Shown here piece by piece: positions 38,323 through 42,893 of a stretch of DNA of 64,000 nt. This DNA comes from Methanococcoides methylutens (GTDB lineage: Archaea > Halobacteriota > Methanosarcinia > Methanosarcinales > Methanosarcinaceae). The stretch's first letter is position 1. Every line of letters begins with the position of its first letter. The translations under genes were made by a program, and so were the position numbers. The DNA is taken from the NCBI RefSeq assembly GCF_000765475.1, contig NZ_JRHO01000013.1, positions 62,001 to 126,000 on the forward strand, written 5' to 3'. The notes beneath the pieces are model-generated. The model ran no database searches, was not told where the DNA came from, and worked only from the letters and a program-made list of their open reading frames with translations.

Positions 38323-38334
38323 AGGAAGTTGACA

Positions 38335-39417
38335 ATGTTTGAAAGATTAAAATGCATTAATATCCTGGAACGGATAACAAATCAGGATGTAACGGGTTTC
38401 TCGGATATGAGAAAGTTCTTAATCCTTTTCATTCTTTTTGCAGTGCTGGGCCTTGCAGCAGTCATCGCCATGGTACTTGGTGCATATAATATCTCCTTTG
38501 TAGATGTATATGCAACTATCATCGCTAACCTCAGTCCCTTTCAGGATGCATCCAGCATCAATAAACTACATAATACCATAATATGGAACATACGGTTACC
38601 AAGAGTTTTGTTAGCTATTATAGTAGGTGCTGCCCTTGCAACATCTGGTGCGGTCTTCCAGGGATGTTTCAGGAATCCCCTGGTTGAACCCTATATTCTC
38701 GGTGTTTCCTCCGGGGCGGCGTTCGGAGCGGCTCTGGCAATTGTTTATCCCCATATATTTCAGTCTATCCAGATATCGGCCTTTGTTTTTGCCTCACTTG
38801 CAGTTATGGCCGCTTATATGCTGGCGAGAACGCGAGGTCAGACCCCGATCATCACTCTCATACTTGGAGGTGTTATCATTGGTTCTATTTTTTCAGCACT
38901 GGTATCCCTCCTAAAATATACGGCTAATGATTCCTCATTACGTGAGATCGTCTTCTGGTTGATGGGTGGTTTCTACTATGCTACCTGGAATGACGTTGTT
39001 ATTATCGCACCAATTGTGGGTCTGTCTTTTCTGGTACTGTGGATGTATGGCTGGAAACTGAATATTCTCTCAATGGGGGATGAAGAAGCCCGGGCACTGG
39101 GTATTAACCCGGAGAAATCCAAGATGATCGTGGTCGCACTTGCAACACTTGTTACAGCTGTTGCGGTTTCAACTGTTGGAATAATCGCGTGGGTTGGTCT
39201 TATGATGCCCCACGCAACGCGAATGATCCTTGGTCCTGATCACAGATTTGTGATACCTTCTGCGGCAATGCTTGGCGGGATATATCTTATTGTCTGTGAT
39301 ACACTGGCACGTACGCTCACCACTTCCGAGATTCCAGTCGGGATCATCACATCAATTGTGGGTGCACCATATCTTTGCTATCTTTTGAGAAACAAAGGAC
39401 GTTCGTTACTTGGGTGA
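38335..39417 (+). CDS. FecCD/BtuC-type ABC transporter permease
   Basis: A 360-residue membrane permease for import of iron chelates or corrinoids. The family signature RLPRVLLAIIVGAALATSGA is at about residues 83-102, followed by FRNPLVEPYILGVSSGAAFGA. The EAA-like cytoplasmic loop DEEARALGINPEKSKM lies near 240, where the ATPase docks. About ten helices are predicted. ATG at 38335 is preferred because GGAAG lies 7 bases upstream; a TTG at 38329 is also in frame. The ATPase gene follows after 5 bp. Confidence 0.88.
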   Translation: MFERLKCINILERITNQDVTGFSDMRKFLILFILFAVLGLAAVIAMVLGAYNISFVDVYATIIANLSPFQDASSINKLHNTIIWNIRLPRVLLAIIVGAALATSGAVFQGCFRNPLVEPYILGVSSGAAFGAALAIVYPHIFQSIQISAFVFASLAVMAAYMLARTRGQTPIITLILGGVIIGSIFSALVSLLKYTANDSSLREIVFWLMGGFYYATWNDVVIIAPIVGLSFLVLWMYGWKLNILSMGDEEARALGINPEKSKMIVVALATLVTAVAVSTVGIIAWVGLMMPHATRMILGPDHRFVIPSAAMLGGIYLIVCDTLARTLTTSEIPVGIITSIVGAPYLCYLLRNKGRSLLG

Positions 39418-39422
39418 TTCTC

Positions 39423-40247
39423 ATGCTACAGGTAAAAGATATTCATTTTAACTATGGATCGACTCAGATCCTTAAAGACATCTCTTTTGATGTTGAAGAA
39501 GGACAGCTCTGTGGGTTATTTGGTCCAAACGGATGCGGAAAGACCACACTTTTCAAATGCTGCATGAAATTCCTAAAGTTCCATAAGGGTTCCGTGACCA
39601 TGGATGGTGTGGACATCAATGAGTGCAGGATCGAGGATATGGCCAAAGTAGTGGCGTACGTTCCTCAGGAGCATAAACCCCCCTTTCCATATCTGGTAAA
39701 GGAAGTTGTATTGATGGGAAGAACACCACATCTTGGAGGCTTTTTTGGCGTCAAACGTGCCGATAAAGAAAAAGCACTGGATGCACTTGAATTGCTGGAG
39801 ATCTCCCATCTTGCAGAACAACCTTATAACGAGTTGTCAGGCGGACAGCGTCAGATGGTGTTGATAGCACGGGCAATAGCCCAGGAGACAAAATTGATGT
39901 TCCTTGACGAACCTACTTCTGCCCTTGATTTTAGCAACCAGTTGAAAATCTGGAAGCTACTACGCAAGGTGGCTGATCAGGGAATTACCATTCTTGCGTG
40001 CAGTCACAATCCGAATCATGTCTCGTGGTTCTGCGACGATGTGGTGGTTATGAATAAAAATGGGATAATTGGGCAGGGTCATCCCTGCCATGTGATCACA
40101 GAGCCCGTCCTCGATGAGATCTACCAGAGTATGTGCACAGTCAGGAGTCTGGATGGGACCAAAATGGTATTGCCCCGTGATGTGGCAGTCAAAAAGAAAA
40201 ATGGGATGTCAAGACAGATGTCATCGCTTCGGAGAGATGTAGAATAA
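39423..40247 (+). CDS. FecE/BtuD-type ABC transporter ATP-binding protein
   Basis: A 274-residue ATPase that powers the preceding permease. Walker A is GPNGCGKTT (about residues 34-42), the signature is LSGGQRQM, and Walker B is LMFLDEPTSALD. The switch histidine lies in LACSHNPNH. The start is ATG at 39423, where MLQVKDIHFNYG matches family N-termini. It is co-transcribed with the permease and with the methyltransferase 15 bp downstream. The C-terminal 35 residues are basic and not part of the ATPase core. Confidence 0.9.
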   Translation: MLQVKDIHFNYGSTQILKDISFDVEEGQLCGLFGPNGCGKTTLFKCCMKFLKFHKGSVTMDGVDINECRIEDMAKVVAYVPQEHKPPFPYLVKEVVLMGRTPHLGGFFGVKRADKEKALDALELLEISHLAEQPYNELSGGQRQMVLIARAIAQETKLMFLDEPTSALDFSNQLKIWKLLRKVADQGITILACSHNPNHVSWFCDDVVVMNKNGIIGQGHPCHVITEPVLDEIYQSMCTVRSLDGTKMVLPRDVAVKKKNGMSRQMSSLRRDVE

Positions 40248-40261
40248 ACGGATGAATTACT

Positions 40262-41107
40262 ATGGATGAAAATACGATTGATTGGAATAAAGTCTGGAAA
40301 AATCAAATGCTAAAGAACATTGAATCGAAGTGTGCCGTTGAGTGTGCCCGTGTATGGGATAACAAGGAAAGTGCAACACAATACTGGAATGCGACGCAGA
40401 ATAACAAAGAACAAACACAGCAGACCATCGAGGGACTTGCACTCACTCCGGATTCCCGAATACTGGATATTGGTGCCGGGCCGGGAACACTTACGATTCC
40501 ACTATCCACTCAGGCAATGCATGTAACTGCAGTAGAACCCTCCGAAGGGATGGCGGGTGTGCTGCAGAACAACATCGCAGAGTATGAGGCCGATAATATC
40601 ACCTGTGTTCAGAAGCGGTGGGAGGATGTGAATGTTGAACAGGATCTTGAAGGGCCCTATGATGTGGTCATAGCCTCTTAGTCCTTAGGTATGCCTGATA
40701 TCAGGGAATCGATCAAGAAGATGACAGACGTCTCCTCGAGATATGTCTATTTATTCTGGTTTGCCGGAGAACCTTCCTGGGGAACCCATTACAAGGCGCT
40801 TTGGCCTTCCCTTCATGCGAGTGATTATCATCCTGGACCAAAATGCGATGTGATCTACAATGTGCTCTACAATATGGGCATATATCCCCATATAGAGGTC
40901 TCTCCGCGTGACCATTTCAACCGTTTTAAGTCTATTGAAGAGGCGATTGGACATTTCAAATCCTACTACAATATCACTACAGAACATCAGGAATCGGTTC
41001 TTAAGAGTTACCTTGAAGACGTTCTTGAAAAGGATGATGATTCCCTTTTTTTGAATGAATCATATACTTCTGTGAAGATCTGGTGGGAACAACAGGCAGA
41101 CGATTGA
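40262..41107 (+). CDS. SAM-dependent methyltransferase with one in-frame UAG (possible pyrrolysine)
   Basis: A 281-residue frame if the UAG at 40679-40681 (codon 140) is read through. The N-terminal part has motif I, LDIGAGPGTLTIPL, and VTAVEPSEGM. The text flanking the UAG, YDVVIAS then SLGMPDIRESI, is continuous conserved methyltransferase sequence, so only one codon is affected. The 141 codons after it are intact, ending in a normal stop. GGATGA precedes the ATG. It lies between the ATPase and binding-protein genes of the uptake cluster, a place where methanogens often carry such a methyltransferase. Alternatives are a single nonsense mutation or expression of two pieces; a second ATG at 40691 has no good ribosome binding site. 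Confidence 0.75.
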
Positions 41108-41153: not shown

Positions 41154-42386
41154 ATGAAATCCAATTTACAATATTGCGTTTTTGTTACTGTATTGTTGAG
41201 CGTCCTGCTGAGTGCAGGATGTGTGGGGAATGCTAGTGAAGATTCCGCAGTATCTCACGAGAAGTACCGAACAGTTGTCGATAGTCGCGGAGTTGCTGTG
41301 CAGGTACCAATAGAGATTGAAAAGGTGGCCACGATCAGCGATGGAATGATTGAAGGGGTTATGACTTCGATTGGAGTCCAAGATACTCTTGTGGGTGTGG
41401 GGTCAAGCTGTCTTCAACGGAACTTTAAATACGCCTACGAAACCGTCGGTGGGGAGACATTTATCTATGAGGATGGGATGAATCCGGTTACCTATCTGAA
41501 CCCCGGGATCGTGGACCTTCCTTGCTTTGCAAAGTCCGGTTCTGCGGTGAACTACGAAACACTTGCAAGCCTTGATCCTGATGTGGTGATCGTACGCCTT
41601 GGTAGCTGCTCACTGCGTTTCATTGATGATGAAAGCACACAAAAGAGCATCGAAACGATCGAATCTCTTGGAATACCGCTGGTCGTTTTATATGGATCAA
41701 ATTGCTATGATGATCCGGATGTTACCACCATCTCGGATGAAATTTGCATCATCGGTCAGGTCTTTGGCAAAGAGGCCGAAACTACCAAACTCGCAGGATA
41801 TCTTGAAAGCCAGACTAATCTTATAAATGAAAGGACAAAAGATATTCCCGATGAAGAAAAACCTGATGTGCTGATTTTTGGAGCATCGCCTAAAGCCCGG
41901 GGTGATGGTGGTGCAGGTCAAATCTTTGGTCTTGATACAATCGAGTCGTTCTTTATTCAGGACATTGCTCATGCGAAAAATGGGTTCCAGGAATCAGGGT
42001 ACTTCAAGACTGTAAGTGCCGAGCACGTGTTGGCATTGGATCCTGATGTGATTGTGCTTTGCACTGCATCTGGATATCACCCGCCACTGGAACTTTATGA
42101 GGCACCTTACTACCAGAATCTGCAGGAACTTAGCGCCGTGAAGAACAGACGGGTTGTAGCATTACCGTGGTCACCGTGCAACTGTGCAAAACGGCTTGAA
42201 TACCCGATTGATGTAATGGTGATTGCAAAGGGAACATATCCGGAGCACTTTGAGGATATTAACCTTGCTGAGTGGCTGTTAGACTTCTACCAGAACGTCT
42301 ATGGTGTTGACCGCGATACTGCAAAAGAGTTGCGCTCAGCCCAGTGGATGGACTGGACGGTCGAGGGGTGCCCAACCTGCAGTTAA
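41154..42386 (+). CDS. Iron/corrinoid ABC transporter substrate-binding lipoprotein
   Basis: A 410-residue lipoprotein of the FecB/BtuF class. The signal peptide ends LLSAGC, with the lipid-modified Cys near residue 23. The mature part has VVDSRGVAVQVPIEIEKVAT, LASLDPDVVIVRLGS and HVLALDPDVIVL, the two-lobe pattern of the family. Extra cysteines occur (WSPCNCAKRL and the C-terminal CPTC), possibly for metal or disulfide. ATG at 41154 follows AGAGGAC. It completes the uptake cluster with the permease and ATPase. The ligand (iron chelate, haem-like or corrinoid) cannot be told. Confidence 0.85.
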   Translation: MKSNLQYCVFVTVLLSVLLSAGCVGNASEDSAVSHEKYRTVVDSRGVAVQVPIEIEKVATISDGMIEGVMTSIGVQDTLVGVGSSCLQRNFKYAYETVGGETFIYEDGMNPVTYLNPGIVDLPCFAKSGSAVNYETLASLDPDVVIVRLGSCSLRFIDDESTQKSIETIESLGIPLVVLYGSNCYDDPDVTTISDEICIIGQVFGKEAETTKLAGYLESQTNLINERTKDIPDEEKPDVLIFGASPKARGDGGAGQIFGLDTIESFFIQDIAHAKNGFQESGYFKTVSAEHVLALDPDVIVLCTASGYHPPLELYEAPYYQNLQELSAVKNRRVVALPWSPCNCAKRLEYPIDVMVIAKGTYPEHFEDINLAEWLLDFYQNVYGVDRDTAKELRSAQWMDWTVEGCPTCS

Positions 42387-42524: not shown

Positions 42525-42893
42525 ATGAATGAAAATTTAATAAACTTGAATGAGATCTGGAAACCCCAGATGTTGAAGCAGGTAGAATCGCACAGTAATG
42601 TAGATTGTGCTTTTGTATGAGAGGAAAAATAGAATGCAAAGCGCTTCTGGGCGATGTCCGGGGCAAACAGTGGAGAACGGATTGAAAAGACCATAAGTGG
42701 AATTTTGATCTCTCCGGATTCCCGAGTGCTTGATGTTGGTGCCGGACGCGGGACATTGGCAATCCCACTTGCAAAAAAGGTCTCCATGTCAGCTGTTGAG
42801 CTATTTAGGGGTATGATAAGTGTGCTGCAGCATCCGATCATCAAGGATTGTGAGGTACTTCTGCTCTCTCCGGGAAGTGTGAACTATCTGTAA
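42525..42893 (+). pseudogene. Decayed copy of the cluster methyltransferase
   Basis: The frame starting at 42525 reads like the methyltransferase at 40262: NEIWKPQMLKQVESHSNVDCAFV, but TGA replaces Trp at 42618-42620 and TAG replaces another codon at 42630-42632. Then AKRFWAMSG and SPDSRVLDVGAGRGTLAIPL follow. The sequence loses similarity after VLQ and stops at 42893. UGA is not known to be recoded in these archaea, so the copy is dead. It shows that this gene family was duplicated here. Confidence 0.75.

What the first reader, a model, noticed from the sequence alone, without database searches (positions are those of the whole stretch)
40262..41107. Methyltransferase with a single in-frame UAG inside a metal/corrinoid uptake cluster
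Codon 140 is TAG, while both flanks are continuous conserved methyltransferase sequence (DVVIAS / SLGMPDIRESI) and the next 141 codons are intact. In pyrrolysine-using Methanosarcinaceae UAG can be read through, so this may be a pyrrolysine-containing non-catabolic methyltransferase. Relatives probably have Tyr or His there. The decayed copy at 42525 warns that it may instead be an early nonsense mutation.
Basis: partly seen in the sequence, partly recalled or inferred. Interest (0 to 1): 0.72.

Follow-up and report, generated by a model that had tools for sequence, protein, structure and literature searches.

The report
Methyltransferase gene with a pyrrolysine codon
In a methane-producing archaeon whose genome barely uses the 'stop' triplet TAG to end genes any more, one accessory methyltransferase gene has a TAG in its middle that is most likely read as the rare amino acid pyrrolysine, one of many such codons in this genome and not a sign of a dead gene.

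Summary
In detail: window 40262-41107 is a 281-codon class I methyltransferase frame with one TAG (40679-40681, codon 140). Every relative that covers the codon has Tyr or Phe there; the two closest orthologues (85% and 82%) have TAC, so one C>G change made the TAG. The host is a Methanococcoides species with complete pylTSBCD. In a 545-kb sample of its genome (492 genes called) TAG ends at most two genes, pylB being the clear one, while 17 in-frame TAGs have coding sequence on both sides. Several lie inside conserved domains (UvrD helicase, biotin carboxylase, TatD, CcmF, Nudix). The TAG in the pyruvate carboxylase A subunit is shared by six species. UAG therefore behaves as a sense codon here, and full-length protein with pyrrolysine 140 is the likely product. 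The 141 codons after the TAG show no decay: no frameshift, no second stop, and no conserved column lost by this lineage alone. Pyrrolysine replaces an aromatic residue that never varies otherwise, so whether the enzyme keeps its activity is open; a chance, nearly neutral gain (as for Thg1 in M. acetivorans) is likelier than a selected catalytic role. It is a new member of a known kind. Peptide evidence is missing.

The parts
40262..41107 (+). Class I SAM-dependent methyltransferase (MT1), 281 codons read through one in-frame TAG, ends at TGA
   Evidence: open frame with TAG as sense, uninterrupted orthologues 82-85% identical, Methyltransf_25 E 1.3e-10
40679..40681 (+). In-frame TAG, codon 140, predicted pyrrolysine; TAC (Tyr) in both closest orthologues, Tyr/Phe in all other relatives
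38329..39417 (+). FecCD/BtuC-type ABC permease, upstream in the same cluster
   Evidence: PF01032 E 6.7e-94; best NCBIfam BtuC, below cut-off
39417..40247 (+). ABC ATPase, ends 15 bases before MT1
   Evidence: PF00005 E 2.6e-33; best NCBIfam corrinoid ABC transporter ATPase, below cut-off
41154..42386 (+). Substrate-binding lipoprotein (Peripla_BP_2), directly downstream
   Evidence: PF01497 E 2.3e-16; 87-88% identical in G005 and G009
42525..42842 (+). Truncated, broken remnant of the second methyltransferase (MT2) of the cluster; intact in G005
   Evidence: about 106 codons, contains TGA and TAG, then similarity and synteny stop

Best explanation
The UAG at codon 140 is a sense codon in this organism and is decoded by tRNA-Pyl (CUA) charged by PylS, giving a full-length 281-residue methyltransferase with pyrrolysine at position 140. 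It arose on this lineage by one C>G change in a Tyr codon (TAC), within a genome in which UAG no longer serves as a general stop, so the change did not truncate the protein. Shown: the TAG, its single-base origin, the complete pyl gene set, the near absence of TAG terminators, other in-frame TAGs in conserved genes, and the intact downstream frame. Inferred: that the protein is made, with Pyl at 140, and that the change was tolerated or nearly neutral, not selected for a catalytic role.
For: Complete pylTSBCD: tRNA-Pyl with CTA anticodon; PylS 707 bits, PylB 568, PylC 559, PylD 376, all above NCBIfam cut-offs. MttB carries its expected single TAG. In 545 kb of own genome, 492 genes called: TAG follows coding sequence 21 times and in 17 coding sequence continues, against 55 of 261 for TAA and 32 of 260 for TGA (Fisher p 6e-10). 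Of the four TAGs classed as terminators, one is MT1 itself and one a dubious frame, leaving at most two, pylB the clear one. TAG terminators were 0 in 138-140 kb samples each of G001, G005 and G010. TAGs lie inside Pfam domains of a UvrD helicase, biotin carboxylase, TatD, CcmF, Nudix, pentapeptide and MarR proteins. The TAG in the biotin carboxylase subunit (PycA, codon 412) is present in six species (90-99% identical) and Ile/Val in four others. In MT1, own-branch omega is 0.27 before the TAG and 0.49 after it (0.13 for codons 141-210), difference from other branches not significant; no conserved column after the TAG is lost by this lineage alone. Another member of the same family, in G003, has an independent in-frame TAG in place of a Glu codon GAG.
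Against: No peptide or expression evidence was available. Column 140 is otherwise always Tyr or Phe (29 of 29 in the alignment), so pyrrolysine may damage the enzyme. The last 71 codons have omega 1.25 on this branch against 0.33 elsewhere (not significant). The tandem copy MT2 is broken in this genome. No RNA structure after the TAG exceeds chance (z 0.41), though such an element is reported as not obligatory (PMC4153887).
Confidence: 0.78

Rival explanations
1. The TAG is a recent nonsense mutation in a dispensable gene: UAG terminates translation here and the rest of the frame is intact only because there has been no time to decay.
For: The tandem MT2 copy is already broken; the cluster is patchy in the genus; an otherwise invariant aromatic residue is hit; omega of the last 71 codons is 1.25 on this branch, not significant.
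Against: TAG is almost never used as a terminator in this genome or in three congeners, in-frame TAGs are common in real genes, and one is held in PycA of six species. So a UAG-decoding tRNA is active and a new TAG should not simply truncate. No decay downstream.
Confidence: 0.12
2. Pyrrolysine at 140 is decoded and has been selected: it sits at the end of strand beta-4, near the methyl-transfer site of class I methyltransferases, and changes substrate choice or chemistry.
For: The position is the end of a predicted strand 133-140 (low-confidence model) and follows the motif DVVIAS; established knowledge of the class I fold places this near the active site. Pyrrolysine is functional in methylamine methyltransferases (PMC2933860).
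Against: Found in one genome only; relatives with the same decoding ability keep Tyr/Phe; other in-frame TAGs in this genome fall in unrelated proteins, as expected for drift.
Confidence: 0.06
3. Sequencing or assembly error: the true codon is TAC.
For: Only one assembly was available; the neighbours have TAC.
Against: The genome is 99.87% complete in 15 contigs; single-base substitution errors are rare in such assemblies (general knowledge); the pattern fits the genome-wide TAG usage.
Confidence: 0.03
4. The gene is split into two working halves, the second starting at ATG 40691.
For: An ATG lies 3 codons after the TAG and opens a 138-aa frame.
Against: The break cuts the Rossmann fold at strand beta-4; no ribosome-binding sequence at a suitable distance before 40691 (sequence); that Met is simply the Met of the SLGMPDI stretch found in uninterrupted relatives.
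Confidence: 0.01

Closest known systems
Thg1 (tRNA-His guanylyltransferase) of Methanosarcina acetivorans, with Pyl gained by neutral evolution (Heinemann 2009, as described in PMC2933860)
   Same: A non-methanogenesis enzyme in a pyl-bearing archaeon with an in-frame amber codon in one species only; relatives use ordinary residues
   Different: Pyl was physically observed and shown dispensable in Thg1; here there is no protein evidence, and the replaced residue is an otherwise invariant aromatic
TAG-poor Pyl-decoding genome of 'Ca. Methanomethylophilus alvus' (PMC4153887)
   Same: Very few TAG terminators (1.6% there) and many in-frame TAGs outside methylamine methyltransferases (16 proteins there)
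   Different: Different order of archaea; here at most 2 TAG terminators in 492 genes called and 17 in-frame TAGs in a 22% sample
Archaeal 'Pyl code' with all TAG codons read as pyrrolysine (Kivenson and colleagues, Science 2025; recalled from memory, not found in the library)
   Same: Would explain the whole pattern, including this gene; I recall that Methanococcoides was among the organisms studied
   Different: Not checked here; pylB in this genome still appears to end in TAG
MtmB/MtbB/MttB methylamine:corrinoid methyltransferases
   Same: In-frame UAG read as pyrrolysine in the same genome (MttB)
   Different: Unrelated fold and chemistry; there Pyl is conserved and catalytic, here it is in one genome only and replaces Tyr

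Membership tests
Pyrrolysine-containing proteins | Host has pylT, pylS and pylBCD | tested here: met
Pyrrolysine-containing proteins | Single in-frame UAG with homologous coding sequence on both sides | tested here: met
Pyrrolysine-containing proteins | Pyrrolysine present in the purified protein or a spanning peptide | not testable with these tools
   Needs mass spectrometry
Genome with UAG as sense codon (Pyl code) | TAG strongly depleted as terminator | tested here: met
   At most 2 of 492 in own sample; 0 in samples of G001, G005, G010
Genome with UAG as sense codon (Pyl code) | In-frame TAGs in conserved genes beyond methylamine methyltransferases | tested here: met
Genome with UAG as sense codon (Pyl code) | No gene ends in TAG at all | tested here: not met
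   pylB appears to end in TAG; PMC2933860 reports the same in M. burtonii and two Methanosarcina. So strict membership is not claimed; it works like such a code
Class I SAM-dependent methyltransferases (Methyltransf_25) | Score above Pfam gathering cut-off, glycine-rich motif I (LDIGAGPGT) | tested here: met
   42.3 bits against 27; motif at residues 68-76
CpaM (corrinoid protein-associated methyltransferase) | Score above NCBIfam cut-off (180 bits) | tested here: not met
   41.8 bits
Methylamine methyltransferases (MtmB/MttB) | Membership of PF05369 or PF06253 | tested here: not met
   Genome-wide searches for both families did not report this gene; it is a class I methyltransferase

The most novel reading that the evidence does not exclude
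Pyrrolysine has been recruited to the methyl-transfer site of a SAM-dependent class I methyltransferase, replacing an invariant aromatic residue and changing its chemistry or substrate: a functional pyrrolysine outside corrinoid methylamine methyltransferases.
Probability: 0.06. Interest if true: 0.75.

Novelty: new member of a known kind. Interest (0 to 1): 0.36.

Why it matters
The gene is one clear case of how a former stop codon enters ordinary proteins once it has become a sense codon. Annotation under the standard code would split this gene and others of the genome (helicase, biotin carboxylase, TatD and so on) or call them pseudogenes. The PycA codon shared by six species suggests that central metabolism in part of the genus now depends on pyrrolysine, which can be tested directly by deleting pylT or pylS.

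Tried and rejected
Structure prediction of the protein (Tyr at 140, three-row alignment) gave mean pLDDT 44.8 and pTM 0.38, so no fold search was made and the position of residue 140 rests on the predicted strand and on fold knowledge. Solved-structure search found only distant class I methyltransferases (best 8e-6). A downstream RNA element was sought: z 0.41 and 0.86, none. No Rfam match or tRNA in the window. A second, UAG-blind release factor was considered: every Methanococcoides genome searched has a single full-length aRF1 over the cut-off. A low hexamer score right after the TAG (3.2 for 60 codons) looked like decay, but intact orthologues score the same there (5.3, 4.7). The raw count of in-frame TAA and TGA with coding on both sides (55 and 32) includes neighbouring genes in one frame, so only the ratio to terminators was used. 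Searches for the 2025 'Pyl code' paper found nothing in the library.

Full report
Observation. Window 40262-41107 holds a frame of 281 codons that is open except for TAG at 40679-40681, codon 140. The translation with TAG as sense is a class I SAM-dependent methyltransferase (Pfam Methyltransf_25 E 1.3e-10). It lies in a cluster of FecCD/BtuC-type permease, ABC ATPase, this methyltransferase (MT1), a Peripla_BP_2 lipoprotein and the remnant of a second methyltransferase (MT2) at 42525-42842. The same order, with intact MT1 and MT2, is found in G005; G009 (M. seepicolus) has the permease, ATPase, intact MT1 and lipoprotein, with related methyltransferases further on. No NCBIfam model for the transporter reaches its cut-off, so corrinoid or iron chelate is only a guess.

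Codon 140 in relatives. In tblastn alignments of relatives from the own genome and the order, every sequence covering the codon has Tyr (TAC/TAT) or Phe (TTC/TTT); the two nearest, 85% and 82% identical, have TAC. In an alignment of 30 full-length family members column 140 is Tyr 16, Phe 13 and the TAG. The TAG is thus a single C>G change on the lineage of this genome.

Can the host read UAG? Yes by gene content. The genus is Methanococcoides. The own genome has PylS, a tRNA-Pyl with CTA anticodon next to it, and PylB, PylC and PylD in the same cluster, all above their NCBIfam cut-offs. MttB has its single TAG. All ten congeners searched have PylS over the cut-off.

How does this genome use TAG? 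I sampled 545 kb (22%), called 492 genes with a hexamer coding model with TAG as sense, and asked what follows each TAG, TAA or TGA that ends a coding stretch. Coding sequence continues after 17 of 21 TAGs, but after 55 of 261 TAAs and 32 of 260 TGAs, many of which are neighbouring genes in one frame (Fisher p 6e-10). Of the four TAGs counted as terminators, one is MT1 itself (family-typical low score just after the TAG), one is in a dubious frame, one leaves 17 codons, and one ends pylB. A pylB ending in TAG is reported for M. burtonii, M. mazei and M. acetivorans (PMC2933860). Samples of G001, G005 and G010 contained no TAG terminator. The literature gives about 4-5% TAG terminators in Methanosarcina and 1.6% in 'Ca. 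M. alvus', where 16 further proteins are predicted to hold Pyl (PMC4153887). The own sample is below both.

Are the other in-frame TAGs in real genes? Seven of ten read-through proteins scanned have a Pfam domain spanning a TAG: UvrD_C, Biotin_carb_C, TatD, CcmF_C, NUDIX, pentapeptide repeats and MarR. The clearest is the biotin carboxylase subunit (PycA): TAG at codon 412 in six Methanococcoides genomes, 90-99% identical, against ATT or GTT in four others. A stop in this gene would not be expected to be kept through that divergence, so in this clade UAG is very probably translated. A second member of the methyltransferase family, in G003, has an independent TAG where relatives have GAG.

Is MT1 decaying? 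A branch model on window, G005 and G009 gives own-branch omega 0.27 for codons 1-139 and 0.49 for 141-281; the latter splits into 0.13 (141-210) and 1.25 (211-281), none significantly different from the other branches. Of 33 conserved columns after the TAG, the window sequence departs at two, one shared with G005 and one shared with both G005 and G009, so none is its own. There is no frameshift and no second stop. This fits both continued translation and a very recent change; together with the genome-wide use of TAG it favours translation.

Mechanism. Most likely tRNA-Pyl reads UAG 140 and a full-length protein with Pyl140 is made. No RNA element near the TAG exceeds chance, which suits a general sense reading, not a programmed one. 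In M. acetivorans, where UAG is both stop and sense, an introduced amber codon was read at 20-30% (PMC2933860); efficiency here may be higher given the lack of TAG terminators, but this is inference. The position follows the motif DVVIAS at the end of predicted strand 133-140; the model is of low confidence, and nearness to the active site rests on knowledge of the class I fold. Because the site is otherwise always aromatic, activity may be reduced, kept or changed.

Comparison. The closest case is Thg1 of M. acetivorans, where one species gained an amber codon read as Pyl and not needed for activity (PMC2933860). I recall a 2025 Science paper (Kivenson and colleagues) describing archaea that read all TAG codons as pyrrolysine, with Methanococcoides among the organisms; I could not find it in the library, so it is a lead only. 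The gene is therefore a new member of a known kind, in a genome that itself is likely covered by known work.

Limits. TAG usage was measured on samples. Gene calling was a simple coding model. One assembly only was available for the codon. No expression or peptide data.

Noticed in passing
L071:16442-17935 (own genome C5:67442-68932), codon 412; L115-L119: The biotin carboxylase (pyruvate carboxylase A) gene carries the same in-frame TAG in six Methanococcoides species and Ile/Val in four others: an old pyrrolysine codon in a core enzyme, a better marker of the code change than the finding itself.
   Followed up: yes
L046:8443-9564 (own genome C9), minus strand: pylB seems to be the only clear gene ending in TAG in the 545-kb sample; read-through would add 42 residues. 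Reported as TAG-ended in M. burtonii too (PMC2933860). It could be a feedback control of pyrrolysine synthesis.
   Followed up: partly
L039 (own genome C5:118412-119761): An MtmB homologue without any in-frame TAG; probably the MtqB type described for tetramethylammonium and choline use in M. methylutens Q3c (PMC13044021).
   Followed up: partly
L030:10-780 (G003): Another member of the same methyltransferase family has an in-frame TAG at a different position, where close relatives have GAG (Glu).
   Followed up: yes
L054:2078, L057:9537, L055:17579, L048:13389, L066:3613: Further in-frame TAGs in a UvrD-type helicase, TatD-like nuclease, CcmF-like protein, Nudix hydrolase and a methylene-THF reductase C-terminal-type protein of the own genome.
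   Followed up: partly
G006 samples L084-L093: G006 shows few in-frame TAGs (0.5 per 100 kb against 3.1 in the own genome), so use of TAG as sense may differ within the genus.
   Followed up: no
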